Assembly: GCA_012862575.1 (NCBI GenBank)
Contig: BLSF01000048.1
Span: forward strand, 253,797 to 317,796
From: Parietichytrium sp. I65-24A
Lineage: Eukaryota > Sar > Bigyra > Thraustochytrida > Thraustochytriidae
DNA length: 64,000 bases
Direction of reading: 5' to 3'
In this document: positions 3,001-58,608 of the stretch, one piece after another
Numbering within the stretch: position 1 is the stretch's first letter
Layout of the letters: the number at the start of each line of letters is the position of its first letter
Notes under the pieces: generated by a model
What the model was told of the DNA's origin: nothing
Database searches by the model: none
What the model saw: only the letters and a program-made list of their open reading frames with translations
Position numbers and translations under genes: made by a program

Positions 3001-4207
3001 TTTTCATTTTATTTTGCAAGTTGATGTTTCCACACACACACACTGACATCATTGGCAATTCGCGCTCAGAGCCAGCTGAGCTATTGAGCTAATGAGGTAT
3101 TGAGCTGCTCGACTGGTGAGAGCACGACCCCCTACAGTCTGAAAGTGAGGATGCTGACGATGCAGAGAATGAATGAAGGAAGACACTACGCAATGTGCAA
3201 TGTGCAATATTCAGAATCAGAATTCACTTTGGCAGTGACCAAAAGGAGGAGGAGAAGGAGAAAAGGAGGAATAACAAGAAGAAGTCGTAGTAGTGGAATG
3301 GAGAAATCTCGGCACTCGAAGACTCTGTGAGGGACACTGCGGCTCGACCGTGGGGGAAAACGAGCAGCACTCAGAAGACGACGAGGTAGCGCAAGTGTTG
3401 AGAGCGCTAGAAGCACGCATCTGCGTTTTATTTTCGCATTCGTTCAATAAGCGAACACTCGCTCTCACAGCCATCGGAGAAGGTAGGAGACAAAACGATG
3501 ATGGTCAAGGGCTGTTTCCGTTGCTCTCTCACGGCACTAGTAGCCCATGCACCTGTGCAGAGAATCGAGTCTTCGCGAGACGACTGGTCTTTAGATCCCG
3601 TGCTCTACAAGAAGGGAGCGTGTTTGCGACGGCGAGCCCACCGAGAACGTAGGAGGAGGATAAAATTAAATGTTTCTTGCGATGTCCGAATCGCATGTCT
3701 TTGAATTCAACTTTCTTCCGCATGGTAAGCGCGGGCTGGTAAGCAAAACTGTCTCGCTCCAAAAACATTCTATATTTGACAAAGACAAGCAAGCCTTCGG
3801 TGGTATTGATTGGAGATAGTCGAGTGGCTTCGGAGATGTGTATGGCTTTAGCACTTCTAAACCTGTGATTAGAGGCAGCTCTGAACAAGACATGCTTTCC
3901 TTCTTCTTCCGAAGAATGAAAATCGGACTCAGAGCTTGAAAAAAAAAGTAACAGTTGTGTCTCCAACTTTCAAAGAAAAAGGTGTGACGAACGGCTTGGA
4001 TGAGTGAGTGAGTGAGCAAAGAATGCAAGGAAGGAAAGAGCCTACCAATGTCACTTCCTTTCATTGGCTTGCTCTCTAATATGCCAAATGAGCTTAGATA
4101 ATAGTTGCTTTGGAATAGTTGCAGGAGAAGTCGATTCGGGCTGCAGTTTCCTAATTTGCAAGTGGGGTGCTGCAAGGGTGTTTGTGCTTCGTTTGCGGGT
4201 GAAAAAG
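1..4207. other. Long gene-poor stretch
   Basis: No reading frame here is longer than about 190 codons, and none shows a recognisable domain or biased composition. The longer frames overlap one another on both strands, as random open frames do. Short pyrimidine-rich runs (about 1975-2035 and 2660-2690) and a purine-rich AGG/AGA tract (about 3238-3275) are visible. The last few hundred bases presumably hold the promoter and leader of the GPCR gene that starts at 4208. I see no RNA gene or mobile element. Confidence 0.6.
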
Positions 4208-7200
4208 ATGACGGGCAAGGCCGCCATCGCGATTGCATTAGCCTCGACGGCGATTCAAGCTCTTCCAGCGGACGCCAGCTGCCAATTCACTAGAATAGAA
4301 CCGGCGAGCTTTCCAAGCTCAGGCGAATGGACCGGAAAGTTGCATGGAGCTGGACTCGAAGTGTCGCCTGCAAGGCTAGTGTTTTTCCAGATTTCGAACG
4401 CATCCCTTGAGATCGACTTGAACGTGCTTAGTTTTGAGGACACGTCTCTGGAGTTCTCCCTTCCGAGCGGAGTCGACCTAATCGAGGATACCTTGTATGG
4501 CGTCAGACTCTACAATGAAAGCGACAGCCAAGTTCTCTGCGAACTGAAGAGCTTTCCAGGCTACGTTCATGAGACTGTATCGATTACGAGCTATAGCGGG
4601 GACTCTGATCGCACAAGCTTTGACGTTGCAGGCAAGGAGTCCATAACGATTCAAGGTGAAGGCTTCTTCCTCCCAGCAACTGCGAGCGAAGTTTATATAC
4701 GCATTCGTGAAACGGATGGCACCTCCATTGACCTTGACAGCTTAGAGGCGAGCGTGACTGCTGGTGCTGATGGGTCTCTCCAAATTACTGCTACAACGCC
4801 AGCTGTGCCAAAACCGCTTGATTGGTACTATGCCTGCGAGGACTCTGAAAATCCAGTCAAGAGCAGCGAGTGCGTCCCAGACATCAACTTGCTCATTAGC
4901 ATCTCGCTTGACAAAGGTCTTTCCTATTCCAACGAGCTCCCAATTGTCTTTGCCTACTTTCGCCCACTCAAAGTAGCTTTCATCTATGTTGGGCCAGTGA
5001 ATGATTTCGGATGGACGATGCGGATCAATGAGGCTCGAAATAATCTTGAGCTTACTTTCGGTTCCAGCGTGAACGCAAGCACATACTTTGAGAATGTCCC
5101 AGAGGGCGAGTACGAAGGTTATCAGAGCGACATCGGTGAGACCGTCAAGCTGGGCACCGAAGTTCCCGAGTACTTTGTAGACGGGAACTCTTCACACTAC
5201 AACAAGTATTACCTCGCGGTCAAGCTCTTCAAGCAAATGTGCGACGAAGACTACGACTTGGTGTTTGCCGCTAGTTTTGGATTCACGTCCCAGGCGTACG
5301 ATGTTTCCGAGCATTACTTGGGCTGCAAAACGGTGGGCGACGGCTCGACCTCTTCCGAAGAGTATAACACTTATTTTCTCGGATCAGCCGGGTACAGATT
5401 TGGCGAGCGTCTTTCCAATGCGTTTGGAAAAATTTACCAGATGCGGTATCTCGTTGGCATGGCAGCTGGCTATGAATTACTGAAGCGGCAATCTGAGAAG
5501 GAAGCCGCGGGGATTACAAACTCAACATTTTGCGTAGGGTACATTGGGGCATACCCGCTCCCCGAAGTACAGCGCGGGATGAACGCCTTTTTGGTAGGTT
5601 GCCAAGAGATGTTTCCAGAGTGCACTATCAAAGCGCTGTGGTCTGGAGTTTGGCACAACGATGAAGTGGAGACCAACGCGGCTGCATTTCTGTGGAACGA
5701 GGGGAACTGCGAGATAGTGACACAGCACAGTGACACAGCAGAGCCCCAAATTTACTACAAGAGCCGAGGAGGCGTCAGTGTGGGATACAATCAGGACGGG
5801 CGGGCGCTAGTTGGCGATTCTGTCTTGGTTTCCGCAATGTTGGATTGGCAGCCCGTGCTCAAATACTTTATCGATAAAGTGCGCAATGGACTTTGGCAAG
5901 CCGAAGAAGACGTGTGGCTTGGTGTTGACGACGGTGCGGTGAAGCTCTCGCCATACTTTAGCCCAATCGTGCCAACGGCCATCCAAGAAAAGATTCTTAG
6001 AAGGAAGACCGAGCTAGAAAATTTACACGGGGATGATGCGTTCACCACAATATTTTGCGGAAATCTCAAGAAACGTTGGACCTACAAGACTGTTGAAGGT
6101 GGCAACGTCCGCACTTCCGGGTGCGGGTTCCAGCCCGAGTGGGTTCGCTTGGACTCAGCAACTCCGCTGAACCCCAAGCATTTTCGGAGAGAGGACGGAA
6201 CGCAGCTTTCAGAATCCGATGTCCCCAGGGACACAGATTGCCTCTACGGCATGGACTATGCTGGGCAGGCTTTCTTGCAGAACGCTTACCCCAGCACACT
6301 CGAGGGCAACGACAGCTCTGTCGACGAAGACTACGTCTTTAACGATTTTCTCCTCGATGGCATTGAGTTGTTTGAACCGGTTGTAAGCTCCTATGGAACC
6401 GTTTTTGGCCCCGATAATCATGGCTGTGCCTCGGATTTCGGCACGCTCGGGGACAGATTCTATTTCCCCCCGACTGTGTATCCTGAGTGCGATGGCACGC
6501 AATGGACTATAAGCAGAGGTGAGTGTGACGCTTCCAGCCTCACTACCTCTGTGGTTTACAGCTGGTTAAAAAATGAGTCCACGGACGAGTATTTGTACTG
6601 CGGAAATGTAGAAGACGAGAGCGGCAAATTTACTACAGTCGCAGATTTACCGTACATGCCATCGGGTCCGCCGTGTGACTTTGTGGACAGAGGTTCGGCA
6701 TCAGGGAAGATTGCCACCGTTGTTGCCGTGTTTGGCGCCAGTGCGCAGCTTTGCATCATCATCCTCACGTTGAAATTTCGAAACGAAAAGCAGATTAAGG
6801 AAATGCAGCCACTATTGGTCATCTGCATGGCCGTTGGAGGAATTATATTGAATCTCAGCACAATTGCATTCATAGGAGAAAACACTGACGAGTCATGCCT
6901 TACGCGCATTTGGCTCTTCAACATCGCCTTCGACATGGTTTTTTCATTCCTTTGGGCGAGAATCTACCGAGTGTTTATTCTGTTCAGCTCGGTCAAGAAA
7001 ATGAGGAAGGTCGTCATTCGTAGCCGAGACGTGCTCAAGAACGCCTTATCCCTCGTTGGCCTCGACGTCATCATTCTTAGCTTGTGGTCCGCGCTCGACC
7101 CACCTGCCCCAACAGAGTCGCACACGGTTCTCGTGGATCTTGTTCAGCCTGCGCAAGGTCACATTTCATTTGTTACGTGCACGTCGTCTTCTGGAGTCTT

Positions 7201-7639
7201 TATGTCGGCGACACTCACCTACAAGGTTGCTCTCATACTCAGCGCTTGCTATCTCGTTTACGCAAGCAAGAAGATCCCATCTTCGTTCGTTGAGCATAAG
7301 TTTATCATTTTCGGCACTTATAACACCGCCGTGCTGAGCTTCATCGTGCTTCTGACGACCCTGGTCACCCAGGACTCCCCCGAGCTTGGACTGGTTATCC
7401 AGTCCATTGGAGTGGCCTTGGGTAACTTTATTGTCATCGGGTCCATCACTTTGCCGCGTTTCTTCGCAGCAATGAATATCATCAAAGTCCGCTCTGGCAT
7501 ATACAGCAGCAACGACGGAACCTCCCCTAGCGGCCAGGCTTCGTCCTTTCCCCTGACCAATGAAGCCAGCAGGCCACCAAGCATGGGTTCCACCAACCCC
7601 ACCAGCTCTCAAAACTCGTCCAGCGTCGTTCCATCCTAG
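4208..7639 (+). CDS. Class C (GABA-B-like) GPCR with IPT-like and Bmp/PnrA-like ectodomain
   Basis: A predicted 1143-residue plasma-membrane receptor. The start at 4208 (MTGKAAIAIALASTAIQA) gives a clean signal peptide. An earlier in-frame ATG at 4088 would bury it, so 4208 is preferred. After a Cys-containing N-terminal segment, residues about 123-197 resemble an IPT/TIG fold. Residues about 254-607 match the bacterial basic membrane protein (Bmp/PnrA) nucleoside-binding lipoprotein family, beginning VAFIYVGPVNDFGWT and including the Bmp-like stretch FCVGYIGAYPLPEVQRGMNA. A Cys-rich linker follows, then seven hydrophobic helices (about 833-1091) of the class C type, and a Ser/Pro-rich cytoplasmic tail. 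Bmp-type ectodomains are known in Dictyostelium Grl class C receptors. A nucleoside-like ligand is therefore plausible but inferred. The coding region is intronless. G-protein coupling is assumed from the family only. Confidence 0.85.
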   Translation: MTGKAAIAIALASTAIQALPADASCQFTRIEPASFPSSGEWTGKLHGAGLEVSPARLVFFQISNASLEIDLNVLSFEDTSLEFSLPSGVDLIEDTLYGVRLYNESDSQVLCELKSFPGYVHETVSITSYSGDSDRTSFDVAGKESITIQGEGFFLPATASEVYIRIRETDGTSIDLDSLEASVTAGADGSLQITATTPAVPKPLDWYYACEDSENPVKSSECVPDINLLISISLDKGLSYSNELPIVFAYFRPLKVAFIYVGPVNDFGWTMRINEARNNLELTFGSSVNASTYFENVPEGEYEGYQSDIGETVKLGTEVPEYFVDGNSSHYNKYYLAVKLFKQMCDEDYDLVFAASFGFTSQAYDVSEHYLGCKTVGDGSTSSEEYNTYFLGSAGYRFGERLSNAFGKIYQMRYLVGMAAGYELLKRQSEKEAAGITNSTFCVGYIGAYPLPEVQRGMNAFLVGCQEMFPECTIKALWSGVWHNDEVETNAAAFLWNEGNCEIVTQHSDTAEPQIYYKSRGGVSVGYNQDGRALVGDSVLVSAMLDWQPVLKYFIDKVRNGLWQAEEDVWLGVDDGAVKLSPYFSPIVPTAIQEKILRRKTELENLHGDDAFTTIFCGNLKKRWTYKTVEGGNVRTSGCGFQPEWVRLDSATPLNPKHFRREDGTQLSESDVPRDTDCLYGMDYAGQAFLQNAYPSTLEGNDSSVDEDYVFNDFLLDGIELFEPVVSSYGTVFGPDNHGCASDFGTLGDRFYFPPTVYPECDGTQWTISRGECDASSLTTSVVYSWLKNESTDEYLYCGNVEDESGKFTTVADLPYMPSGPPCDFVDRGSASGKIATVVAVFGASAQLCIIILTLKFRNEKQIKEMQPLLVICMAVGGIILNLSTIAFIGENTDESCLTRIWLFNIAFDMVFSFLWARIYRVFILFSSVKKMRKVVIRSRDVLKNALSLVGLDVIILSLWSALDPPAPTESHTVLVDLVQPAQGHISFVTCTSSSGVFMSATLTYKVALILSACYLVYASKKIPSSFVEHKFIIFGTYNTAVLSFIVLLTTLVTQDSPELGLVIQSIGVALGNFIVIGSITLPRFFAAMNIIKVRSGIYSSNDGTSPSGQASSFPLTNEASRPPSMGSTNPTSSQNSSSVVPS

Positions 7640-11121: not shown

Positions 11122-14100
11122 ATGTCGGAAGAGCGAACAAGGCAACTTCAGAAGGCGATGAGCCTGGAAAGCATTCCGTCGATACCTGGCTTTCAGGCTC
11201 GTCCGGTGACCAGGGGAGGTGGTCACTTCAAGCCACAGAGGTTTACTCTGGGGCATAATGGCCGCTTCGAACGCGAGTTCCCGAGCACCCTGCAAGGCGC
11301 ATCGGAGCAAGTCATTCTGCAAAAGGATGAGCTCCTCAAGCAATGGCAAGAGATTGCAGAGCAGGAGAAGCTGCGCCAGTACGCAGAAGATCAGAAGGCA
11401 CGCATGATGGTGTCTCCAAAGTCGCTCTCGACGACCAAGTCTGTCGACGCGCTTCGTGTGCCACCCTCATGGCTGAAGCACAATCGTGACGTTCTTCGCT
11501 TCTTCATGTACTTTCAAGAGCCTGTCTTCGAGTCTTCCATCGAAACATATCGCGTCCGCAAATGTGTGGCGTTCTTTTATCTCGAGGACGGCAGCATCTC
11601 CATTAACGAGCCGAAGGAGAGTAACTCCGGACTTTCTCAAGGTTCCTTTCTCAAACGTGCCGTCGTTACGAACGACAGTGGCGAGAATCTGACCCCTGAA
11701 GACTTTTTGGTGGGCAAGGAGATCACCATCCATGGCAGGACATTCCGTGTGGTTGATGCCGATGTGAAGACGCGCAACTACTTTGTGCAGAATGGAGTGC
11801 TTGTGGACGACGCTGAGCCATACCCTGAGGATCCGCATAGACGCAAGATCCGCACAAGTGCCGAGGCTGCGCTCTTGAGGAAAAGCCCTAAAGCAAGTCC
11901 GAACGCACGCAAGGGCGGTCTCAACAGTCTGCTTAAAAACGACCAGACACTCAAGTTCATGGTCTTGTGGGATGACACCTCTAGGCTTTACGGCCAGAAG
12001 AATTTCTACAGTCTCCACTACTTTCTTGCCGATGACACTATGGAGATTCGGAAAGTCGCTTCTGGACATCAGGGCAACAACGACTTCCCTGTCCTTCTCA
12101 AGCGCTCCAAGCTTCCTCGCGATGTTGACGATACCGACGCTGGGTTCGTTACCTCCGAAGATCTTGTGTGCGGGCAGATGATCAACTGCTGGGGTCGCCA
12201 GCTTATGCTCCTAAAGTGCACCGACCCTTTCACAACGAGCTACTACGAGCGCGTGCACGGCTTCAAGCAGCCTGTTGTTCAAATTCGCGAGGAGCACAAG
12301 CCAATTATTAAGAAGGTCATTCCTCCTTACAATGGCTTCGGTTCCGAGGCAGATTCTCTTGCAAATTGCTTGAATCTCATCCCGAAACCAGTAAGTCAAG
12401 ACCTCCACAGATTTCTCAACAATCGAGGTAAAACTCTCCGCTTCAAGGCCATGTTTGTCAATCCAGGGCCGGAGGACAAGGACCGCCGCTTCCAGATCAC
12501 TTACTACATGGACGATGACACTTGTGCCGTGTACGAACCTCCTCGTCGCAACAGTGGCATCCTTGGGGGCAAGTTCTTGGAGCGTGGCAAGTACAAGAAA
12601 CCAGTTCGCGCAAAGGCTCGGTCTACCAGCGACCTCAAGCTTCTCAAGGATACCATCTTGGACAAGATCCAGTCTCGTATGGTCGGCGGTCCGTACGTCC
12701 TTTTGCGTGCATTCAGGAAATTCGGCTCTGATGAAAACGGATGTATTTCGTTCGAGAACTTCAAAATCGGGTTGCGTTCTATTGGAATTCTTCCGACTGC
12801 CTTCTCAGACGAGCAGCTTGAGCGCTTATTCAGACTTTATGATAAGAGCGGGGACATGAAGATTGACTACCAGGAGTTTGTGGATCACGTTATGCAGGAT
12901 AAGCCTATCGCTGCGAACGAAGCGCGCTTCACATTACGCTGGCTGCGAACCTCTGACTTTTACGTTGGGGCCGTCATTCAGTTCGTCTTTCAGCAAACTG
13001 GAGCAATGACCCAGGAGTTCGAGATTCTTTCTGCCGACCAGCCAACTCTGGACCTTATGCAGGATCATCCTAGTGATTTCCCGAAGTCAAATGTAGAGGC
13101 GATCGCGTCAATGCTTGCGGAAACGTTGAGCGAAAACCATGTAAACGTCAACGAAGCCTTCAGAGTCATCGATACGCAAGGGAAGGGTTGGATCCATCCC
13201 GGAGAGTTCGGTCAGCTCTTGCGTGCCTGGGCTCTCGACTTTGGCCTCATTGCCGATGACCTCACCGAGCACGAGATGCAAACTCTAGTTCGCCACTACG
13301 ACCGCGATAGCGACGGCCGTATTTATTATGATGAGTTCGCAAACGCGCTCAAGAAGAAGAAGCCTCTCGACAACAAGCCTCAGGAGCAGAGAATTAGCAT
13401 TGAAGCAGCTACCGAGGTCATCTTTGACAAACTCCAGAGCTTGAAGGATGTAGATATCATGGCCAAGTTCGTAGAGATCGATGAGGACAACAGTGGAAAG
13501 ATTTCTTGGGAGGAGTTCCAGCTCATGTTGCGCCGTTTCGATATCTACCTCAACAACGAGAAGGACAAAGCTTTTCTCATGCTCAGATTTGACGCTAACG
13601 GCGACGGTCTCATCGACTACAAGGAGTTTTGCGACAGCCTGTTCGTCATTGAAACCGTCAAGGAGAACGGCCAGCTAAGAAAGCGCCTTATTCCTCGAGA
13701 CCCCAAACAGCTCTTGGAGAGCAACACTCAAGACCAGGATGAAAAGGACACTGACAACATGTACGAGTACAAGTCTCTTCTCTCGAGTGCGCAAAATAAT
13801 CAGAGCGAGTTTGTGCAGCTTCGAGAGATGATGACTGGCTTCTCGGCCAAGTTTATCTCCCGCAGGAAGCTACTGCAGAAAGTCCTCGCATCTTACGACA
13901 TTGACGGTACAGGATTCGTGCTTCAGCGCGAGTTCGCCGAAGCTTTGCAGCGCGCAAACGCCGAATACACCCCTCGCGAGCGTATCAAGCTCATTTCCTA
14001 CATCTTCCCTGAACCTGACTACGAACTTGACTACCTCAAGTTCATGGATATCTTCTTTTCGCAAGATATCAGTGCGGCTCTTCAAACTTTCGGCCATCTC

Positions 14101-14133
14101 GTTTCCGAGCTTTCTGATCAGGCCGACGAATAG
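11122..14133 (+). CDS. EFHC/RIB72-type DM10 and EF-hand axonemal protein with nested EF-hand pair
   Basis: A 1003-residue protein of the EFHC1/EFHC2/RIB72 family, which are inner proteins of the axonemal doublet microtubule; it is therefore evidence for a flagellated stage. The ATG at 11122 is the first credible start. DM10 domains lie at about 120-235, 275-380 and 435-640. The third is split: after the strand ending LERGKYKKP (about 493) there is an insert of about 113 residues holding an EF-hand pair, and the domain then resumes with SDFYVGAVIQFVF. Three more EF-hand pairs follow, with canonical loops such as YDRDSDGRIYYDE, IDEDNSGKISWEE and FDANGDGLIDYKE; the final partner is degenerate. 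Typical EFHC proteins are about 640-750 residues with a single C-terminal EF-hand region, so this one is longer and more calcium-rich. No intron is needed. Confidence 0.88.
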   Translation: MSEERTRQLQKAMSLESIPSIPGFQARPVTRGGGHFKPQRFTLGHNGRFEREFPSTLQGASEQVILQKDELLKQWQEIAEQEKLRQYAEDQKARMMVSPKSLSTTKSVDALRVPPSWLKHNRDVLRFFMYFQEPVFESSIETYRVRKCVAFFYLEDGSISINEPKESNSGLSQGSFLKRAVVTNDSGENLTPEDFLVGKEITIHGRTFRVVDADVKTRNYFVQNGVLVDDAEPYPEDPHRRKIRTSAEAALLRKSPKASPNARKGGLNSLLKNDQTLKFMVLWDDTSRLYGQKNFYSLHYFLADDTMEIRKVASGHQGNNDFPVLLKRSKLPRDVDDTDAGFVTSEDLVCGQMINCWGRQLMLLKCTDPFTTSYYERVHGFKQPVVQIREEHKPIIKKVIPPYNGFGSEADSLANCLNLIPKPVSQDLHRFLNNRGKTLRFKAMFVNPGPEDKDRRFQITYYMDDDTCAVYEPPRRNSGILGGKFLERGKYKKPVRAKARSTSDLKLLKDTILDKIQSRMVGGPYVLLRAFRKFGSDENGCISFENFKIGLRSIGILPTAFSDEQLERLFRLYDKSGDMKIDYQEFVDHVMQDKPIAANEARFTLRWLRTSDFYVGAVIQFVFQQTGAMTQEFEILSADQPTLDLMQDHPSDFPKSNVEAIASMLAETLSENHVNVNEAFRVIDTQGKGWIHPGEFGQLLRAWALDFGLIADDLTEHEMQTLVRHYDRDSDGRIYYDEFANALKKKKPLDNKPQEQRISIEAATEVIFDKLQSLKDVDIMAKFVEIDEDNSGKISWEEFQLMLRRFDIYLNNEKDKAFLMLRFDANGDGLIDYKEFCDSLFVIETVKENGQLRKRLIPRDPKQLLESNTQDQDEKDTDNMYEYKSLLSSAQNNQSEFVQLREMMTGFSAKFISRRKLLQKVLASYDIDGTGFVLQREFAEALQRANAEYTPRERIKLISYIFPEPDYELDYLKFMDIFFSQDISAALQTFGHLVSELSDQADE

Positions 14134-15206: not shown

Positions 15207-18200
15207 ATGGCCGCTGATCCCGTGAGAGCGCTGCTGATAATTGATGTGCAGAACGACTTTATCGACGGGAGTCTGGCCGTCCCGGGTGCGAAGGATATAC
15301 TGGACGTGGTGAATGGGCTGCGGAGAAAGCAGTTTGATTATGTGTATTTGTGCCTGGACTGGCACCCTGTAAACCACTGCTCTTTTCGGACGAACAACCC
15401 CGGGGCGGAACTGTTTCAAGTGCTCTACCTGCCTAACACGGGGGATGCGCAGCGGATGTGGCCGGATCACTGCGTGGAAGGGTCGCGAGGAGCGCAGCCG
15501 CACGAGGATCTCTTGATCGAGCCCAGTGACATCTGGTCCTTTGCAGGGACCAACCCGCGACGAGACAGCTACTCGGTGTTCAAAGACAATGGCAGCAAGC
15601 ACTTCACGGACATGGTCAACTCGCTTCGTGAAAACAACGTGTCCGAGATTTATGTGACGGGTCTGGCAACTGATTACTGTGTGCAGTACACGGTGCTGGA
15701 CGCGAAGGTGTACCTAACAAATGCAGAAGTGTTTGTGATAGAGGACGCCTGTCGCGGTCTGAGTGAGGAAGGGGTGGAACGGGCGTATAAATCTTTCGAG
15801 CTTGAAAAGGTGAAGGTGATCAAGTCGACCGGAAAGGAGATCGGCTTTATACCGAATCGCAAAACAAGGTTTGATGGAAAGCTTGAGCTGTTGCGGCCCA
15901 ATCTATTTCGTGGTCAGAAAATTCCGGACTTGGACGAAGCGTACGAGGCTATTGTTTGCGGGGCATCTTTGAGCAGAAAAAAGTTGAAGGCGCTCGTAAA
16001 AGCTGGAGCTATTAATCACGAATGCTCTTGGAGCGCAGCAACTCTGCTGCACGCGTCCAGCGAAAGAGGTAGCTTGAATGATATTGCCCTCATATTTGAA
16101 GTAGGCGGCTCGCAGCTTGACAGCACAAAATTAAATTGTCGCGGAGAGAATGCTCTTATGCTTGCTATTAGACACTTGGTCGGCCATCACAGGGTCAAAA
16201 CGATAAAAGCAATTCTGCGTCACTCCAGCGAAAGCCAACGCAAGCTCCTTTTGCACGCAAAAACGCTTGAACAAGAGCAAACAGTACTGATGATGGCTTG
16301 TCAGCAAGGCGACTTAGAAATTGTGGAGTTATTACTAGAGACAGATCACAGCGTGGAGCACCTCTCCCAAAAGTCGAAGTTTAAGAAAACGGCCCTTATG
16401 TACGCAAGCATGAAAGACACCCCAGAAGCCGGCGCAATAGTGGAGCTTTTGTTGCGTTCGAGGCAGCCCGGGACGGAGCGTCTAAAACTAATATCTGCAG
16501 TGGATTCTGAAGGTTGGAACGCCCTTCACTTTGGCGCAAAGTCGGGTTGCCTTGCAAAGGTGGACTGGGGCCGGGCGCTGGGTACCGCGGATCTTGTCGC
16601 CTGCCTTCCTTTTAATAACCGCACCTCCGATGGGCTGGGATTCTCCGTGCTGCAGCTGGCAGCCTGCAATGGACACGATGAGGTGATCCGTACTATATTA
16701 GAACTGTGCGAGGTTGATTCTGAAAGAAATTCGGAGAAATCATCACTTGCTCTTGCGGTGAACAATACAATTCGAGGCACAGGGGACACGGAGCTGGACT
16801 TGTCATTGAAGAGGGGTCACCTGGAATGCTCGCGGCTTTTGCTGCGGCTTTCTGCGCATGCTTCCACCGAATCAGACAAAATGCAAGAACTTTTGCACCG
16901 ACTCGTGTTGATGGGCGACGTCGAGGCGTGTGAAAGTATTCTCGACTTTGCGGACGAGAACGAAATAGTCATCGACGAAGCTCTCGTAGTACTCACTCAA
17001 AGAATGGAATCCCCGGAAACGTGCACATTCTCCTTCGCCAATTACACGCATCCTGTGCAACAATATCTACACTTTTGCGAATTCTGCTCCGCTTGGGTGT
17101 GCTTGGTGTGCAAGGACCGATGCCATGGCCGTGACACCTGCCGTAGTAAGCTTCGCAATCTCGACTTGGAGCACTCTCCAAGCAAGGGGTGGAGACGTAG
17201 GGATATTCAAGTATGCTACTGTGAATGCCCTCGGGAATCTTGCTGTGCCAGCTCGGACTTGGATTTACGAGAAAAAGAAGCAAGAACCTTTAGTCCAGCC
17301 CCGATTCACACTGGTCACATTTGCTTGGATGGCCCGCTCATCCACCTGTCCAAAATGCTTGCAAGAAACATTCACAACGTTTGGGCGCAAGAGAAGCATG
17401 ACGACGGATGGGCGTACAGCAAAAGCAGAGACGACTCCAAAAAGTTGCATCCTTTACTTCTCCCATTCGATACGTTGACCGAAGAGGCTGCAAAGTATAA
17501 TACGGATATCTCAATCGAGACGATAAAGGTAATCAAAGCTCTTGGGTACGAATTGATTCCTCCAGCGAGTAAACAAAACACCGAGAAGGCACTCGAGGAA
17601 GCTCTTCATCTCCCAGACAAAGTCTCACCCAAATCACATAGAGCGAGCACTGTGGAAGATAAGTTTGCTGATATTGCTTGGCGGCCGACCGACCCGAAAT
17701 GCAGTCCCATGGACACAAACAAAATTACTCTTCCGCAAGAGCTTAAGGAGCTGGTGGAATGCGTTGCCAAGAATTCTCATGAGGTTTGGGCCTCGGAAAA
17801 AGTTCGGAAGGGCTGGAGATACGCTCCGGCTAGAAACATCAAGGTTGGTTTAAAGCTGAACAAGTCGCTAGTTCCTTTCGCAGCCCTCGACGAAAGTGAG
17901 AAAAAGCATCTTCTCCACGGTTCCACGGAAATGATAAAGGCAATATGTTTGCTGGGATACAGGGTAGTAAAGGAAAGCGACGACAGATCTGCACCGTCCC
18001 GATTACGACGGACCATGGAGAGGTTTCTTCCGCCGTCTCAGATATCTGCAGAGTCGTGCCACAATCTGATCGAAACCCGGAGGGAGCTCTTCAATCAGTA
18101 CCTTTTTGCCGCCACACGCCGCGGCCAATTCAACTCGATAGACATACTGATCGCCACCCAACAAAGTATGCACGTGGGAGCAAATCTAAATGCGCAGGAC

Positions 18201-21200
18201 AAGTTTGGGCACACTGCATTGTACATCGCAGTAAAGCGCGGCCACGCGCAGACAGTCAGGCGGCTCTTACAGCTGCACGTTCGTATTGATTTGAAAGATA
18301 ACAATGGTGTCTCCTCGCTTGCACTGGCAGCTTACCTTGGCAACCTAGACCTCTGCCAAGAACTTGTCCGCCACGATGCTGACATCCTTTCGGTTGATAC
18401 AATGGGCTTCACGCCCTTGCATCATGCAGCGTACCGTGGAAATCTTGAGGTATGTGGGTATCTGGTTGAGTGTCTTCAACTGCGTTATCAAACCACCTCT
18501 GTTGTCAACCTAAATTCTAGTTCAGTCCTTCACGTAAAGGGTCTCCCTCAAGGGAGTGGGTCTTTTAATGGCGCGGAAAGCCCGAGGTTGGACGGTGCCA
18601 AGAAGAGTATGATGAAAAGACTGAGCTTCAAAACTGGACAGCATCTCAAGCTAGATCGCAGCTCAACCAAGATTTCGCCGCTCCCAATGAAAGCGCATTC
18701 CCCCAAGGTGAACAACTTTTTGGACGGAAGTTCAATGCAGCGAGGTAGTCCTCGCTCTCCTTCACGATCCGAGAGTGGGTTGGAGGACGACGCTCTTTCG
18801 GCACAGTATTCGCTGACTTCTTTTTCCCCGTTGTCGCTTGCCATTTTCATGAACCAGATCAACATTGTGGAGCTTTTGATCAAGAGCGGTGCGGATCCAA
18901 TGCTTTCCGACGATTCTAGCAACAATGCCGACAAGTCATTTCCGCCATATATTCGAGCGCTGCTGCACCATATTTTCACTGCAAGTGAAGTGGATGGACT
19001 GCGAGAAGAAATCTCGCTCCGGGCTGTTCAGGAAGAATCGTTTTCCATGAAATCGTCGCCATTGGGGCAATTTATGACCGGCTACCAGCAGGGCCAAGTG
19101 TCCAACATGAACGACGGCGGGTTCAGCAAGCTAGCAGAGCAGACAATGGGAATTCAATCCGCTTGGGCTGCTGCTTCTCATTTCGCTCGCCGGCCGTCAT
19201 TTTCGCGAGGCGATTCTCACCTTGAGCTCCAAAATCAGACCACGCGAGAGCTCAACCATGCTCTTGACCAAGCCCAGGAGCGACTGCAAGGAGCTGCCAA
19301 GATGATCCAGGCGCTCAATAGTTCCGAGCGCGTCACTCGCTGGCGAAAGGTTAACGCTTTAAAGCAGTTTTACAGGGAGACGGTGCTCAAGGCAATCATG
19401 ATCCTTGCATTTGCATTTAACGTTCAATTGGCGCCAGACTATGATGTGGCATCCGAGCAGCAGTGGAAGTCGAGGATACATGAGCATTTGGCGAGAATCC
19501 TGGAGGAGATTGAGACGGTGGAAGACTTTCAGCAATCGTTCTTGTCGCGAGTCATTCGATTGGACAACACATCGAACGCTGCCACGTTTTTGAACTTTAA
19601 TTATCTTATTGGCGCGATTCGCTACGTTCAAAAGGAGCACACTTCCTCCGGATACTTTGATTATGACGAGTTCGTGGATTACGATCTTGGACGTGAGCCT
19701 GTGGCAACTTCGCTTGACATTGTTCCTCAAAGTGCAGAAAACATGACCACTTTTCTTTTGCAAAGTGGACCATCAACGAATCCACTGACTTTGCAAAGCT
19801 TGAATTTCGAGATTAACTTGTACAACCCGTTCTACGACATATTTGGAATTGTAGATGTCGAGTTGTCGAGCTCGTTCTTCGACGTTCCCGAGTTAACTGC
19901 TACAGTCCGGGAGTTCCGACTCAATTACAAGCGATTTCCTCCATCCAGGGAGTTTCAGGTGCTCCTAATCACATTGGCCATCCTGTTTATAGGGCATGGA
20001 ATTCGGCATTGGTACTTGAAACGAGGCAAGCGGAAAGACTTGCGCACCCAAATTCTTGCGGTGATCCTCCTGGTAATCATTCTCGTTGTGGACATTTTTG
20101 TGTATGAATGGAGTCGCCATATACACGCCGACTCAAAGCTTGAAGAATTTCAGGATCTTCGGTCTATCCAGCGGCTCTTGGAAATGGAGCGCAGGGCTTT
20201 CGGGTTTTTCTTGTTCCTTAGCACGGTTCCGTTGCTGAACGCAGCTAGAACGATTCCAAGTGTTGGCCCAGTCATTGTGGCTCTTTTGAACACAATTACG
20301 AATATGGCCGTGATCATTTACCTTGCAGTTGTCGCAAGCGCATGCATGCTCATTTCCTTGAGTTTTCACGTCAGCTTTGGCACGGAGGTTTTTGAATGGA
20401 GCACCCTTTGGAAGACCTTCGAGAATCTGTTTCACAATCCCTTCATTCAGGTATGGGATACCATGAGATCAATTTTTGCGGAATCTACTTCTGGAATGGT
20501 CCTTTCGGTAGCCTACATATTGTTCGGGACCATCACAATCAATTTGCTGATTGCCGTCGTGTCGGACGTCTATCCTAGAGAAAGAAAAGCAAGCGATAGC
20601 CTGTGGGAGACAATTGTAACCCAGGGAATCGAGAATGACCTATGGTACGCTCGGCTCAGCAGCTCAAAGCGCAATAAATGGTGTTGCTCCAAAAGTACAG
20701 TGTCTGAAGCCGAATCTTTTCGAAAATTGGAGGGCGACCTGAGCATCGAATATTGGCAAGAAGAGGACATACTGAAAGGCAAAGAGGGCATCCGATACAG
20801 CGCAAATACGAAAGCGGCTCAACCCGCAGACTCTGAAACTGAGATGCGAGTGAGAAAGTTGGAAGAGGACGTGAGGACGTTTTTGACGAAAGGTAGTATC
20901 CAGCGATCTGAGTACGCTGGTGGCCATCCCGTTAGTGCAAGAAGCGGTGAATTAACTGGTCGCAGTTACTATGGCGAATTCACGGGTGACGGTGAACAAA
21001 AGCCCTCCTCTTCTTTCGAAGCAAAATCTCAAGGAGTCGAAAACAGGCTTAGGGACTTGGAGTCCAAACTGGACCTACTTCTTGGAAAACTTGACCACTT
21101 GATTCCCGCTCAGAAAAACAGCAGCACTGTTTCAGACCCATGGAGAGCTCGTGCAGCAGCAAATGAGACTATGATGGCCGAGGGCGGTGATGCGGGCATT

Positions 21201-21476
21201 GCCTCCGAAAGCGAAATCGAAGCAGCCAAGCAGCTCATTTCTAGACTTCTCCAGCGTGGGCCGTGCCCACTAAATCGTATAAAAGAAGCTTGTGAGAAGT
21301 TTGTACCTCCTATTAGCTGGGGCGCCGCCAAACAAGCACGGAGAATCATGGGAGTCGTTCAGTGCAAAGATAACGTGAAAATTGATGGAGCTGTTCAGAT
21401 CGTGCGCTTCTGGCGCCAAGGCTCGCCGGACGAAATTGCATACCTGGCCCGCAAAGCAGAAGATAGTGGGTTGTGA
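15207..21476 (+). CDS. Nicotinamidase - ankyrin - UBR finger - RyR x2 - ankyrin - polycystin/TRP channel fusion
   Basis: A single 2089-residue open frame with ATG in a GGAGAG leader. Residues 1-215 are a nicotinamidase/isochorismatase-type hydrolase with the full known active-site set: D13, K126 and C158 (catalytic, in GLATDYCV) and metal ligands D51, H53, H57 and H88. Ankyrin-like repeats follow (about 270-560). Next comes a UBR-type zinc finger (C606, C624, C627, C632, C635, H640 and the 670-674 CYCEC cluster). Two RyR domains lie at about 711-783 and 842-921, each with an IHxVWAxEK...GW core, and then more ankyrin repeats (about 962-1090 and 1206-1230). The membrane part is polycystin-like: S1 near 1390, a TOP-type extracellular domain to about 1580, S2-S6 to about 1790, with INLLIAVVSDVYPRER closing S6. 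A coiled coil (about 1945-1975) and a small unknown C-terminal domain end the protein. Inferred role: a cation channel gated by, or coupled to, nicotinamide/NAD+ chemistry. Confidence 0.85.
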   Translation: MAADPVRALLIIDVQNDFIDGSLAVPGAKDILDVVNGLRRKQFDYVYLCLDWHPVNHCSFRTNNPGAELFQVLYLPNTGDAQRMWPDHCVEGSRGAQPHEDLLIEPSDIWSFAGTNPRRDSYSVFKDNGSKHFTDMVNSLRENNVSEIYVTGLATDYCVQYTVLDAKVYLTNAEVFVIEDACRGLSEEGVERAYKSFELEKVKVIKSTGKEIGFIPNRKTRFDGKLELLRPNLFRGQKIPDLDEAYEAIVCGASLSRKKLKALVKAGAINHECSWSAATLLHASSERGSLNDIALIFEVGGSQLDSTKLNCRGENALMLAIRHLVGHHRVKTIKAILRHSSESQRKLLLHAKTLEQEQTVLMMACQQGDLEIVELLLETDHSVEHLSQKSKFKKTALMYASMKDTPEAGAIVELLLRSRQPGTERLKLISAVDSEGWNALHFGAKSGCLAKVDWGRALGTADLVACLPFNNRTSDGLGFSVLQLAACNGHDEVIRTILELCEVDSERNSEKSSLALAVNNTIRGTGDTELDLSLKRGHLECSRLLLRLSAHASTESDKMQELLHRLVLMGDVEACESILDFADENEIVIDEALVVLTQRMESPETCTFSFANYTHPVQQYLHFCEFCSAWVCLVCKDRCHGRDTCRSKLRNLDLEHSPSKGWRRRDIQVCYCECPRESCCASSDLDLREKEARTFSPAPIHTGHICLDGPLIHLSKMLARNIHNVWAQEKHDDGWAYSKSRDDSKKLHPLLLPFDTLTEEAAKYNTDISIETIKVIKALGYELIPPASKQNTEKALEEALHLPDKVSPKSHRASTVEDKFADIAWRPTDPKCSPMDTNKITLPQELKELVECVAKNSHEVWASEKVRKGWRYAPARNIKVGLKLNKSLVPFAALDESEKKHLLHGSTEMIKAICLLGYRVVKESDDRSAPSRLRRTMERFLPPSQISAESCHNLIETRRELFNQYLFAATRRGQFNSIDILIATQQSMHVGANLNAQDKFGHTALYIAVKRGHAQTVRRLLQLHVRIDLKDNNGVSSLALAAYLGNLDLCQELVRHDADILSVDTMGFTPLHHAAYRGNLEVCGYLVECLQLRYQTTSVVNLNSSSVLHVKGLPQGSGSFNGAESPRLDGAKKSMMKRLSFKTGQHLKLDRSSTKISPLPMKAHSPKVNNFLDGSSMQRGSPRSPSRSESGLEDDALSAQYSLTSFSPLSLAIFMNQINIVELLIKSGADPMLSDDSSNNADKSFPPYIRALLHHIFTASEVDGLREEISLRAVQEESFSMKSSPLGQFMTGYQQGQVSNMNDGGFSKLAEQTMGIQSAWAAASHFARRPSFSRGDSHLELQNQTTRELNHALDQAQERLQGAAKMIQALNSSERVTRWRKVNALKQFYRETVLKAIMILAFAFNVQLAPDYDVASEQQWKSRIHEHLARILEEIETVEDFQQSFLSRVIRLDNTSNAATFLNFNYLIGAIRYVQKEHTSSGYFDYDEFVDYDLGREPVATSLDIVPQSAENMTTFLLQSGPSTNPLTLQSLNFEINLYNPFYDIFGIVDVELSSSFFDVPELTATVREFRLNYKRFPPSREFQVLLITLAILFIGHGIRHWYLKRGKRKDLRTQILAVILLVIILVVDIFVYEWSRHIHADSKLEEFQDLRSIQRLLEMERRAFGFFLFLSTVPLLNAARTIPSVGPVIVALLNTITNMAVIIYLAVVASACMLISLSFHVSFGTEVFEWSTLWKTFENLFHNPFIQVWDTMRSIFAESTSGMVLSVAYILFGTITINLLIAVVSDVYPRERKASDSLWETIVTQGIENDLWYARLSSSKRNKWCCSKSTVSEAESFRKLEGDLSIEYWQEEDILKGKEGIRYSANTKAAQPADSETEMRVRKLEEDVRTFLTKGSIQRSEYAGGHPVSARSGELTGRSYYGEFTGDGEQKPSSSFEAKSQGVENRLRDLESKLDLLLGKLDHLIPAQKNSSTVSDPWRARAAANETMMAEGGDAGIASESEIEAAKQLISRLLQRGPCPLNRIKEACEKFVPPISWGAAKQARRIMGVVQCKDNVKIDGAVQIVRFWRQGSPDEIAYLARKAEDSGL

Positions 21477-33546: not shown

Positions 33547-36500
33547 TTACACCCCGCTCTCTTCCAAAACACCCCCGTCGGTGGTTGTTACATTGGTGTA
33601 GATGTCCATACGCGTCGTCAGTCCTGAACCCGCAGTCGCCTTGACGGTTCTTGGAGCGACGGTGCTCTTATCTTCAGAAGTAGTTCCGCTCGCCCCATGG
33701 TTTGTTGCAGTAGATTGCTGGTTGATGATGTCTACCTTGTACATCTTTGGAACGAAAAGAAATACTAGCATCATGGTATTACACAGCCAAATCGGGGGAC
33801 CTGTCGCAAAATATCTCGCGACCGGGTCAGATATCGCGAATGACACCCCAAAGCTGATGGAACCCAGGACAAGGATGTTGTAAATTGACATGCCGATCTC
33901 CTTGGAATCGTTCATCTCCGGGATAGAGACCTTGCGTGTCATGTACGCCAGGTATGCACCACGAATGATCATAGACCCAATTGCCAGTGCGAGAACCAAA
34001 AGGAGAATGTTATGGTTCTCACTTGAGCAGTACTCGGTCACATAGACGACTTTTTGGCCATCCACGAATTCTGGACTTGCGAGATCGACGTAGAAGTGAT
34101 GTGGACTGATAGCCTCAAAGATAAACAAGATGAGGACCACGATGAAGACGTACCCAGCGACCAGCTTGAAGAGCCGTTGCGCAGGAAACTTTACCTTCTT
34201 CATCTTCTTGTTGTTGAAAAGTAGGTGCACTCTTTCCGCCTTCACGAACAATGTCGCAATGGAGAGCGTTATTCCGATCGAGAGCATCCAGATCCGTGGA
34301 ACACATGAGCTGGTCACAATGGAGCCGCAATATTCGAGTCCTTTTACCGGCACGGATCCCGAATAATTTGCCTCAAAGGCAACCTGACACTCTGATGAGC
34401 TCTCAGCGCCGGGCCCCATAAGCCAAAGTGATAAGTACACGAGTACGCTGCCAAGTGTGACGCACAGGTTGGCGTAACCAGACATCAAGCGCACAGTTCG
34501 AGTATTTCGGCGTGCGATGAGCCAGACAGTAGAGAGGACTGCCAAGATCAATCCTGTTATTACGAGCAGACCAGCAATTGGAGCTGTGCTAGACATATCC
34601 TCCCATTGGAAATAGATCGGCAGAGAACCGCAACTGACGTAGACCGGATACTCTTTGCTGATAGTTTGGGAATCCGCTTTATCGTTGATGGTCACCGTAA
34701 TGGTTCCCGACTCAAGTAGGAGCGAGGTGCACGTCAAGGCGGTGACGTCCAGTTCCAACAACACCTCAGTTTCAGATTCACTTTGTAGAGCGTTGCTGTT
34801 AATGGTTGACGGGACGGCGGAACCGTTAATCTGGAGCTGCAGGTTCGACGAGGCCACGACGGAGACTTCATGCTGATCTGAAATTCCATCAACATCGACA
34901 ATGTGAATGACAAGACGAGCTTCCTCGCTCGGAACGAGATCCACCTCGGTCGTCCAAGATACCGGCACGGGGGCGTCGTAAACTGCTTGAATGTTGACGT
35001 CAACAGTGCCATGACGAGAATCTGGCCCAGTCAGTCTCCGGCTTTTTTCATAGTATGGGCAGTCAGACACACTGTACTTGATGCCATCCACTCCATTACT
35101 GTCACCATTTGGTTTGTACCAAATGGCGTTTCGCATCCCACTAAGACTTGAGCTATCAAGAAGAAGATTGCCAGAAGGTGTTACGGCTCCATCTAGTAGG
35201 ACGGCGTCCAGGGCCGGCCAGCGAGCGTCGCTTTCCATTTCAAACCAAATCCTCAATTTCTTCGTGGGAAATGGTTTCGGGCAGATATTGTACTGTACGA
35301 TAGCAGCACACTGTGCATTCTCAGGAAGATTGGTACAGTAAGAAGACTGCGAAGTACTTCCTTCCCAAGCTGTGGACCACTCTCCTGGGCGCCAGGCGTT
35401 CTCCATCTCGATTTTGTAAGCACCACCAGGGCTCCAAACCTCAAACAGACTGACAGTCTTTGCAAATACCGCAGTCTCATAATTGACCAGAACCCACATC
35501 TCTGAGGCTATGTTCTCGGGCTGCCACGTGGGATGGTCGTCGCCAGGATAAGGATACTGATCAGGTTCGCCAGCTGCGGCATTTACGCAAAAGTCTTCGT
35601 CCCAGCACTGGCTTGCTGTATTCTCGTCCGACTCCATGACCCACTGCGAGATTAAACCTGCTTCAGAAGTATCTATTAGTTGAATTGAACTGGAGCTCCA
35701 ATCCCCACCATCGTAGCGATAGAGAGTGCCGAGCTCGGGAAAACCGCTGATTTCCACTGTGAAGTTGTCACCTTCGCGATCGTAAATGAGGGAGTCCAAG
35801 TCAATCAACACAGCTGCGCTGTCTTCCTCCATTTCTTTTGTCAACGTCTGTGCAGTTGGTGGCGAATTTTCCAATGGAACGTCCACAAAAACAAATGCTT
35901 CGTTGCTATACTCCAGTCCATCCCAAGCCCGGTATCGGATGCGAAAGACGTTCTCACCGCCCAGATTAGAAGTCTCATCGTGCTTGAGAATGACTCTTCG
36001 CTCGGAAGGAAAAACACTGTATGTTGTGCCTGGATCAAGCTTGTTTTCCCATATGACCCCCAAACCAGCCGTGCTGGTGTACTCGTCAGTAGCTCCCTCT
36101 CCGCTTTCACTTTCGTCTTCCCCTGAGGAGTACTCGGGAGCAAAGGTCGTCGCACATTCCGGGCAGTAGAATACTCCGACAATATCCGTGTTTCCTTCCA
36201 GTGAAAGGATCTCGTAGACGAGGTTCGTTCCGTCCAGCTCGTCAGTCACGACAACTTGGGTATCTGGAAAAAACAGGATTCTCGTCTGTCCTTCTTTCAG
36301 GGTGACTGTCGTGTTAAGCAGCACAGCAGGTGAGTTCGTGGTTACTTTAACTTGCATAGAGGCGATACCATCCGAGTTACCAAAACTGAGCTCAAAGGAA
36401 TCCTTGCTTCCTGGTTGAGTATTAACAGAAGGAGCATAGCCAATCACGATGGTAGCATTGGAGTCTTCTCGCTCAACTGTAACGTTTGAGCTCAGAGACA

Positions 36501-57438: not shown

Positions 57439-58608
57439 ATGGAGAGCGTGTTCCGCAAGCAGGAGAATCCCCGGGGATGCGGACTTGCGTCACTGGCGAT
57501 AATAGTTGACGATCTGCGCCGGGCCAGGTTCGACCAAGTTCCTGATGTGTTCATCAAGGAGGAGGATGTAATAAATATGCAGAGCGGCAAGGGAGTACTG
57601 GACATGGAGCAGGTCGGGCAGCGTGGAATGACGCTGCCGCAGCTTTCTCGGTTGGCATGGGACATTGGGCTGTCCAATTTTTACGTTCACGCGAGTGACT
57701 TTCAGAGTTTGACCGACTTTAAAAGATCCGTCCAACGCTTGCTCTCCCTTGGACGGCGCATTATTCTCAACTATCACATGACAATTGCTGGGCAACCACC
57801 TTTCCAAGGCCACTTTAGCCCGCTAGTCGCGCTAGACGTTGCGGTCGACGAAGAGCGCAAAGCCTTTGCCGTCCTCGACTGTTGGATGCAGACGAAGGAA
57901 AACAAGGTCTTTCTTGAGGAAGACAAGGTTTGGGCCGCCATGCAAGACATCGACCTTGACTCTGGAAGGAGCCGCGGCATCCTCGTGGTCTGTAGTAGCC
58001 GCTTGCCAACCACTCTTGAAGAGCCGATTCCTTCACAGCTTGATCTTCGCGGCAAAGCACGTTTTGCTGATCCCAGGATCTTTCTCGACAAAGAAATGGA
58101 GGCTCTGTATGCTTTTATAAACGCAGAGTATGCCTCTAAGCCATTTGTGAAGGAGTCAGTGCGAGACACCATTCTCCGGGTCACCAAAGAGGAGCTTTCC
58201 GCCATGTTAGACAAAGGCAGCCTCGCGGTTCTCGTGTCTGCGGACGGAGAGGTTCACAATGCTACGGATGTCAAAGAAATACTTGGTGTCGTCCAATTCG
58301 AGCAACTCTCAGAAGGTGAGGCGGAGTGGGGTATGTTGTGCACTAAAAGCGCGTACCGCGGCCATAGTATTGGAAGCTTGCTCATGGACTGGGCTGAGAT
58401 GAAGTGCATACAGAGTGGTGCAAAAACCCTGAAGCTGTGCTATTTTGATTACGAACGAGATGTTGGCGTGTATGGGAAAAACTACAGACAGAAAGGCTAC
58501 GTGGAATTCAGCGAGAGTCCGCTTCCTCCAAATGTGCAGGGCAACTGCAAAGAGGAGTATGAGAACTGTGTATTCATTCATGCCAAGCTATCTCTGGACT
58601 CCGAGTAG
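57439..58608 (+). CDS. Phytochelatin-synthase-like protease domain fused to GNAT acetyltransferase
   Basis: A 389-residue, single-exon gene with ATG in a GAGAGAGA leader. Residues 1-190 match the phytochelatin synthase (papain-like, C83) fold: C14 in NPRGCGLASLAIIVDDL, H125 in GHFSPLVALD and D147 in AVLDCW form the expected Cys-His-Asp triad with near-family spacing, followed by RGILVVCS. About 200-385 is a GNAT N-acyltransferase domain with acetyl-CoA-loop-like SAYRGHSIGSLLMDWAE, in which the usual Gly at the fourth position is Ser, and a C-terminal Y/F-rich strand region. Phytochelatin synthases transfer gamma-Glu-Cys from glutathione to make metal-binding peptides; related short proteins only hydrolyse glutathione. 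The family's Cys-rich C-terminal sensor domain is absent, replaced by GNAT. A role in thiol/metal or glutathione-conjugate metabolism is inferred. Confidence 0.8.
   Translation: MESVFRKQENPRGCGLASLAIIVDDLRRARFDQVPDVFIKEEDVINMQSGKGVLDMEQVGQRGMTLPQLSRLAWDIGLSNFYVHASDFQSLTDFKRSVQRLLSLGRRIILNYHMTIAGQPPFQGHFSPLVALDVAVDEERKAFAVLDCWMQTKENKVFLEEDKVWAAMQDIDLDSGRSRGILVVCSSRLPTTLEEPIPSQLDLRGKARFADPRIFLDKEMEALYAFINAEYASKPFVKESVRDTILRVTKEELSAMLDKGSLAVLVSADGEVHNATDVKEILGVVQFEQLSEGEAEWGMLCTKSAYRGHSIGSLLMDWAEMKCIQSGAKTLKLCYFDYERDVGVYGKNYRQKGYVEFSESPLPPNVQGNCKEEYENCVFIHAKLSLDSE

What the first reader, a model, noticed from the sequence alone, without database searches (positions are those of the whole stretch)
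15207..21476. Nicotinamidase fused to a polycystin/TRP-type channel: a candidate new chanzyme
One uninterrupted frame carries a nicotinamidase with every known catalytic and metal residue (D13, D51, H53, H57, H88, K126, C158) and, 1,200 residues later, a polycystin-like channel with S1, a TOP-type domain, S2-S6 and the conserved post-S6 motif. TRPM2 (Nudix domain on a TRP channel) is the known precedent for an NAD-metabolite-linked channel. I know of no nicotinamidase on a polycystin channel. It suggests channel activity coupled to nicotinamide level or local NAD+ salvage.
Basis: partly seen in the sequence, partly recalled or inferred. Interest (0 to 1): 0.93.

Follow-up and report, generated by a model that had tools for sequence, protein, structure and literature searches.

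The report
Channel with nicotinamidase-like sensor domain
A protist (probably a thraustochytrid) and its relatives make a polycystin-type ion channel that carries a nicotinamidase-like domain and a ryanodine-receptor nucleotide-binding module; the nicotinamidase part has lost one of its three catalytic residues, so it may sense nicotinamide rather than destroy it, much as human TRPM2 turned an enzyme into a sensor.

Summary

One key claim is wrong: K126 is not the catalytic lysine. That lysine aligns with A113. It is Lys in 5 of 5 solved nicotinamidases printed and in 18 of 22 prokaryotic relatives that are nicotinamidase-type (3 others gapped), but Ala in 9 of 10 fusions and Ser in the tenth. 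The metal site is kept in 9 of 10. The domain is nevertheless the best-conserved part of the protein.

Best reading: an NAD-metabolite-sensing polycystin channel whose nicotinamidase domain became a nicotinamide sensor or a very slow enzyme, beside an adenine-nucleotide/ADPR-type site in the RyR module. It works like TRPM2 but from other parts. Anatomy near certain; gating inferred.

The parts
15207..21476 (+). whole gene, one 2089-codon frame plus stop, no intron seen
   Evidence: colinear paralogue P0009 and homologues
15222..15836 (+). nicotinamidase-fold domain, residues 6-210: Asp13, metal ligands D51 H53 H57 H88 and Cys158 kept, triad lysine missing
15543..15545 (+). codon of A113, where nicotinamidases have the catalytic lysine
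   Evidence: Lys in 5 of 5 printed solved structures and 17 of 22 prokaryote rows plus L041 by eye; Ala in 9 of 10 fusions, Ser in P0011
15837..17006 (+). N-terminal helical repeat region, residues 211-600, ankyrin-like at least in part
   Evidence: Pfam ankyrin families with several stretches; helical pairs in the model
17022..17243 (+). Cys/His cluster, residues 606-679, probably zinc-binding, family unknown
   Evidence: C606 C624 C627 C632 C635 C639 C672 C674 invariant in 10 of 10; no Pfam match
17289..17555 (+). RyR domain 1, residues 695-783; H723 W726 H748 N765 at the spacing of the RyR3 first repeat
17703..17969 (+). RyR domain 2, residues 833-921; H858 and W861 kept
18099..18491 (+). 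C-terminal ankyrin repeats, residues 965-1095
   Evidence: best Ank_2 stretch 967-1062
19326..20669 (+). polycystin-type channel, residues about 1374-1821: S1, TOP-type beta domain (about 1450-1570), S2-S6, pore helix
21192..21458 (+). C-terminal segment, residues 1996-2084, also found next to another PKD-type channel of the genome
   Evidence: 44% identity to C28:174135-174404; PKD_channel match at C28:175287

Best explanation
It is a polycystin-family (TRP superfamily) channel with a large N-terminus made of metabolite-binding modules on an ankyrin scaffold. Shown by sequence or model: a nicotinamidase-fold domain with metal site, Asp and Cys but without the triad lysine; a tandem RyR module like ryanodine-receptor Repeat12 with its His-Trp-His ligand residues in the first repeat; a PKD2-like channel with a TOP-type domain. 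Inferred: the nicotinamidase domain binds nicotinamide through its metal and cannot hydrolyse it, or does so very slowly, and so acts as a nicotinamide sensor or timer; the RyR module binds an adenine nucleotide or ADP-ribose-type signal; both states pass through the ankyrin repeats to the pore. NAD+ cleavage yields nicotinamide plus ADPR or cADPR, so the channel could read both products of one NAD+-cleavage event. It would work like TRPM2 (a former metabolic enzyme as ligand domain) and along the nicotinamidase / nicotinamide / TRPV axis of worms and flies, in one chain.
For: Lysine column. Metal ligands kept in 9 of 10 fusions, C158 in 8 of 10. Domain is the most conserved segment in 7 of 7 homologues compared (52-70%), dN 0.25 and dS 2.28 between the two copies: selection keeps it without the lysine. 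Further decay in P0006 (Cys to Thr) and P0011 (triad and D51 lost) while the domain stays attached to a channel. Separate nicotinamidase-like frames with the full residue set in the genome. RyR module; RyR-domain relatives bind 2'/3'cADPR (PMC13232231). Channel. Nicotinamide opens TRPV channels, nicotinic acid does not (PMC5064019 passages). Genome has 38 TIR_2 matches.
Against: No binding, gating or enzyme data. D13 and C158 are still kept in most members, which a pure sensor may not need. K104A of OiNIC lost activity (1.45% left) but was refolded from inclusion bodies and the authors blame refolding (PMC3581539 passages), so the effect of losing the lysine is not cleanly known. The nicotinamide-gated precedents are TRPV, not polycystin. 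RyDEP's catalytic Asp is Asn here. P0007 and P0011 lack RyR, so the RyR site is not essential to the family. Only 1 of 4 TIR loci inspected fitted my recalled catalytic-Glu pattern. The NAD+-cleavage step is not shown.
Confidence: 0.48

Rival explanations
1. True chanzyme: the domain is a working nicotinamidase in spite of the missing lysine (K126 or a neighbour compensates), lowering nicotinamide beside the channel or feeding NAD+ salvage.
For: Asp, metal site and Cys kept in 8 of 10 fusions; K126 kept in 7 of 10; NAPRT present to use nicotinic acid; no NAMPT match. In the choanoflagellate TRPM2 chanzyme a slow enzyme module closes the channel (PMC11479946 passages).
Against: Lysine present in all true nicotinamidases that could be aligned and absent in the fusions; column 126 varies in true enzymes; K126 is R, N or S in 3 of 10 fusions; separate complete enzyme-like frames exist.
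Confidence: 0.22
2. Structural relic: the domain and the RyR pair serve only assembly or tethering of the tetramer, with no ligand.
For: RyR domains are described as sites of protein-protein contact in RyR1 (passage of PMC4820453); no ligand data.
Against: Metal ligands and pocket motifs are the invariant residues, and H-W-H of RyR domain 1 is kept in 8 of 8 RyR-bearing fusions (P0006 by eye with a three-residue shorter loop).
Confidence: 0.15
3. The pocket handles another small amide or acid, not nicotinamide; lysine loss marks a new substrate or ligand.
For: The superfamily includes biuret, maleamate and carbamoylsarcosine amidases, which appear in the structural list.
Against: Sequence and structure are nearest to nicotinamidases and the nicotinamidase metal site is kept.
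Confidence: 0.13
4. Artefact: two genes joined by assembly or an unseen intron.
For: None found; no RNA of this organism was available.
Against: Second intronless copy on another contig, seven fusions and a divergent transcript.
Confidence: 0.01

Closest known systems
Oomycete PKDRR proteins (PMC7399828 parts 1-2 of 7; PMC4820453 passages)
   Same: PKD-type channel and two RyR domains in one chain, in stramenopiles
   Different: There the RyR domains follow the channel near the C-terminus; here they precede it, with ankyrin repeats and a nicotinamidase-like domain added. Those papers call PKDRR oomycete-only; the main text of PMC7399828 has no 'nicotinamid' or 'thraustochytr'.
TRPM2 with NUDT9-H (PMC11479946 passages; PMC6461439 abstract)
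   Same: TRP-superfamily channel fused to a relative of an NAD-metabolite enzyme, which in human TRPM2 is inactive
   Different: Another enzyme fold (nicotinamidase against Nudix), at the other end of the chain, on a polycystin-type rather than TRPM-type channel
Nicotinamidase PNC-1/Naam and TRPV channels (PMC5064019 passages; PMC11766345 passages)
   Same: Links nicotinamidase, nicotinamide level and a TRP-superfamily channel
   Different: Separate proteins, active enzyme, TRPV rather than polycystin channel
Repeat12 of ryanodine receptors and phage RyDEP (PMC13232231 parts 1-2 of 6)
   Different: No RyR/IP3R channel attached; RyDEP's catalytic Asp117 is Asn here, as in RyR3
Polycystin-2 (PKD2)
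   Different: About 10% identity; different filter region; PKD2 has no such N-terminal modules (recalled)

Membership tests
Nicotinamidase (PncA/Pnc1) | nicotinamidase fold and sequence similarity | tested here: met
   NCBIfam equivalog cut-off not reached (142 of 174 bits)
Nicotinamidase (PncA/Pnc1) | metal site D-x-H ... H | tested here: met
   D51, H53, H57, H88 aligned
Nicotinamidase (PncA/Pnc1) | Asp-Lys-Cys catalytic triad | tested here: not met
   Asp13 and Cys158 present, lysine is A113
Nicotinamidase (PncA/Pnc1) | hydrolyses nicotinamide | not testable with these tools
   needs assay
Polycystin (TRPP/PKD) channel | S1-S6 with TOP/polycystin domain between S1 and S2 | tested here: met
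   Pfam polycystin domain in homologue P0011 aligned by profile
Polycystin (TRPP/PKD) channel | Pfam PKD_channel or Ion_trans over cut-off | tested here: inconclusive
   not in the window protein; one or both over cut-off in 4 of 8 fusions scanned (P0003, P0008, P0009, P0011), no channel match at all in P0006
Polycystin (TRPP/PKD) channel | cation conduction | not testable with these tools
   needs electrophysiology
RyR domain (PF02026) | Pfam match over cut-off, Repeat12 fold | tested here: met
RyR domain (PF02026) | ligand residues H, W, H and D of RyDEP | tested here: inconclusive
   H, W, H in domain 1 of 8 of 8 RyR-bearing fusions, Asn at the Asp, as in RyR3; domain 2 keeps H and W
Oomycete PKDRR | PKD channel followed by two RyR domains | tested here: not met
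   both parts present, order reversed; common ancestry not tested
TRPM2-type chanzyme | C-terminal Nudix (NUDT9-H) domain | tested here: not met
   no Nudix match at E up to 1 in the window protein; homologue P0007 has a weak Sa_NUDIX match near its N-terminus
Chanzyme (channel with enzyme activity) | enzyme activity in the channel polypeptide | not testable with these tools
   lysine loss argues against ordinary activity

The most novel reading that the evidence does not exclude
A new class of eukaryotic NAD+-cleavage receptor: a polycystin channel that reads both products of NAD+ hydrolysis, nicotinamide in a pseudo-nicotinamidase pocket and an ADPR/cADPR-type nucleotide in a Repeat12 module, and turns TIR-type NADase activity into a cation signal. 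It would be a second, independent case of TRPM2-style capture of an NAD-metabolite enzyme by a TRP-superfamily channel.
Probability: 0.25. Interest if true: 0.95.

Novelty: new variant of a known kind. Interest (0 to 1): 0.82.

Why it matters
Channels that captured a metabolic enzyme are few, and TRPM2 is the model case for how catalysis is traded for gating. This family would be a second case with another enzyme, with members at different stages of active-site loss (Lys lost in all 10, Cys lost in P0006, nearly everything lost in P0011) and separate complete enzyme-like genes in the same genome. It bears on why nicotinamide gates TRPV channels in animals, and on whether RyR Repeat12 domains sense cADPR-type signals, because here that module sits beside a nicotinamide-type pocket on a smaller channel. 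It also shows channels with PKD-type pores and RyR pairs outside the oomycetes, to which the papers read confine them.

Tried and rejected
Rejected: K126 as catalytic lysine. Rejected: the fused domain as the cell's only nicotinamidase. My note said so from the searches; the frames at C10 (two) and C61 then proved to carry the full residue set. Their substrate is untested and they score only 50.7, 39.7 and 36.1 bits to the NCBIfam nicotinamidase model, cut-off 174.

Rejected or inconclusive: a UBR-box reading of the Cys cluster (no Pfam match in the window segment; two chance-level PDB matches; low confidence in the model). CD38-type cyclase: no match, but the control rang nowhere, so uninformative. 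The search with the RyR region listed only two proteins, both known fusions, of 1128 candidates; it missed other RyR-bearing fusions, so it says nothing about RyR channels without nicotinamidase. phmmer with the channel region found no channel in the PDB. The channel tree has long branches and weak support. Rows left out before the nicotinamidase tree: L059-L062 and P0010. In one search, L041 was read in a wrong frame; one search printed the right one, judged by eye. L059-L061 have a gap at the lysine column; L062 has K but not the D-x-H motif. No oomycete PKDRR sequence was at hand, so common descent with PKDRR was not tested. dS could not be computed outside the nicotinamidase domain. P0004 and P0005 were not scanned against Pfam by me. 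Structural lists show at most 50 rows.

Not found in print in these searches of an open-licence library: 'nicotinamidase' with 'TRP channel' (9 papers), with 'ankyrin' (10 papers, 8 listed), with 'ion channel', 'fusion', 'domain architecture' (none); 'thraustochytrid' with 'ryanodine receptor' (1 paper) or 'TRP channel' (2 papers); 'RyR domain', 'ankyrin', 'nicotinamide' (none); 'PKDRR' (3 papers). Judged from listings, abstracts' beginnings and the passages named in the report; most subscription journals are not held.
Full report
WHAT IS THERE. Window 15207-21476 (+) is one uninterrupted frame of 2089 codons. Pfam finds an isochorismatase/nicotinamidase domain (8-205), ankyrin repeats, two RyR domains (best 695-783; second at 833-921), more ankyrin repeats (best stretch 967-1062) and weak Ion_trans and PKD_channel matches ending at 1794 and 1789.

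IT IS NOT AN ARTEFACT. Searching the window's own genome (42.5 Mb, 172 contigs) with the whole protein gives one other full-length match, on contig C19: an intronless 2031-aa frame with the same order of domains, 53% and 42% identical over two stretches. A search of a 5.8-billion-protein database with residues 1-215 found seven proteins with the domain at 1959-3051 aa, and all seven align with the channel region. One is from Hondaea fermentalgiana, a thraustochytrid, named there an ankyrin repeat protein; one (P0002) is an MMETSP transcript labelled complete. A second search found an eighth, very divergent one, the transcript P0011, also labelled complete. So ten fusions were compared: two from this genome, seven, one. 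P0006 and P0008 are more distant; P0007 and P0011 have no RyR match. The species of this genome is not given; 'thraustochytrid' is inferred from these relatives, only one of which bears a name.

THE NICOTINAMIDASE DOMAIN HAS LOST ITS LYSINE. Nicotinamidases use an Asp-Lys-Cys triad and a metal; in a computed SpNic complex the metal holds the pyridine nitrogen of nicotinamide and the lysine is thought to stabilise the cysteine thiolate (PMC6271260, passages). In the alignments to five solved nicotinamidases printed the residue opposite A113 is Lys each time. Of 22 prokaryotic relatives fetched, 18 of nicotinamidase type have Lys there (17 tabulated; L041 by eye in the frame); L062 also has Lys but lacks the D-x-H motif; L059-L061 have a gap. 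One of the six patterns used to fetch them contained the Ala motif, which if anything favoured Ala. In the fusions it is Ala in 9 of 10 and Ser in P0011. D13 and the four metal ligands are all kept in 9 of 10, C158 in 8 of 10: P0006 has Thr; P0011 has Glu and has also lost D13 and D51. How much activity the lysine is worth is not cleanly known: K104A of OiNIC kept 1.45% but was refolded, which the authors think the cause (PMC3581539, passages).

YET IT IS THE BEST-KEPT PART. Identity of the window protein to seven homologues is 52-70% in this domain, the highest of 12 segments in each of the seven, against 19-38% in S1-TOP, 22-45% in S2-S4 and 27-57% in S5-S6 (P0007 and P0011 were not in that comparison). 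Between the two copies dN is 0.25 and dS 2.28, near saturation. In a tree with 18 prokaryotic nicotinamidases the ten fused domains fall on one side of one branch (support 90/88; P0011 on a very long branch, so its place is unsure). One fusion with early loss of the lysine is the simplest history.

OTHER NAD GENES. The genome has one NAPRT match, no NAMPT match (the control rang in 2 of 14 genomes), and three separate frames, two on C10 and one on C61, that carry Asp, D-x-H, His, Lys and Cys of a nicotinamidase-like enzyme, judged by eye. Two further isochorismatase-family frames (C25, C19:540880) show no D-x-H motif by eye. So the fused domain need not be the salvage enzyme. The genome has 38 TIR_2 matches, 37 over cut-off, and 4 matches to the other TIR model; TIR-domain proteins can turn NAD+ into cADPR isomers (PMC13232231). 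That these do was not established: of 4 loci inspected 1 fitted my recalled catalytic-Glu pattern.

HOW IT MOST LIKELY WORKS. Shown: parts, order, conservation, lost lysine. Inferred: nicotinamide binds the metal pocket and is not, or only slowly, consumed; a nucleotide binds the RyR pair; both act on the pore through the ankyrin repeats. The precedents are separate: nicotinamide opens TRPV channels of worm and fly (K1/2 63 and 14 uM) while nicotinic acid does not (PMC5064019, passages); a flonicamid metabolite inhibits fly nicotinamidase and nicotinamide builds up (PMC11766345, passages; that paper doubts it as flonicamid's main target); a choanoflagellate TRPM2 couples slow ligand hydrolysis to closure (PMC11479946, passages), and human TRPM2 is catalytically inactive (PMC6461439, start of abstract in listing).

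COMPARISON WITH WHAT IS KNOWN. PKD channels with two RyR domains (PKDRR) were described from oomycetes as found nowhere else, with the RyR domains near the C-terminus (PMC7399828 parts 1-2 of 7; PMC4820453 passages). The present protein has the reverse order and adds ankyrin repeats and a nicotinamidase-like domain. Whether the two descend from one ancestor was not tested. The searches listed under Tried and rejected found no paper on this fusion.

VERDICT. Real, conserved, not found in print by these searches, and more unusual than claimed, but 'intact nicotinamidase' must be dropped. I file it as a new variant of the TRP-superfamily channel fused to a metabolite-enzyme relative.

Noticed in passing
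P0007 residues 190-397 (database protein, 3051 aa): A Sa_NUDIX match (26.8 bits, cut-off 25) upstream of the nicotinamidase-ankyrin-channel parts: possibly a second NAD-metabolite domain on the same kind of channel, in a relative without RyR domains.
   Followed up: no
window 21192-21458 (residues 1996-2084) and G000:C28:174135-174404: The last 90 residues are 44% identical to a stretch beside another PKD_channel match on C28; a similar tail is seen in P0002 but not in P0009, by eye.
   Followed up: no
own genome, PF13676: 38 TIR_2 matches, 37 over cut-off, in a 42.5 Mb protist genome.
   Followed up: partly
window 17022-17243 (residues 606-679): Cluster with eight Cys invariant in all ten fusions, no Pfam match; perhaps a zinc-binding module between ankyrin and RyR parts.
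   Followed up: partly
G000:C5:639089-639313: A separate small RyR-domain frame (158 aa, 104.5 bits), apparently continued after an intron.
   Followed up: no
window 4088-7639 (+) and 33547-37590 (-): Two family-3 GPCR-type frames (7tm_3), the first with a Bmp/PnrA-like ligand-binding domain.
   Followed up: no
window 11122-14133 (+): DM10 domains plus EF-hands, just upstream of the channel gene on the same strand; DM10 proteins are ciliary (recalled).
   Followed up: no
window 57439-58608 (+): Phytochelatin synthase match followed by a GNAT acetyltransferase match in one 389-aa frame.
   Followed up: no
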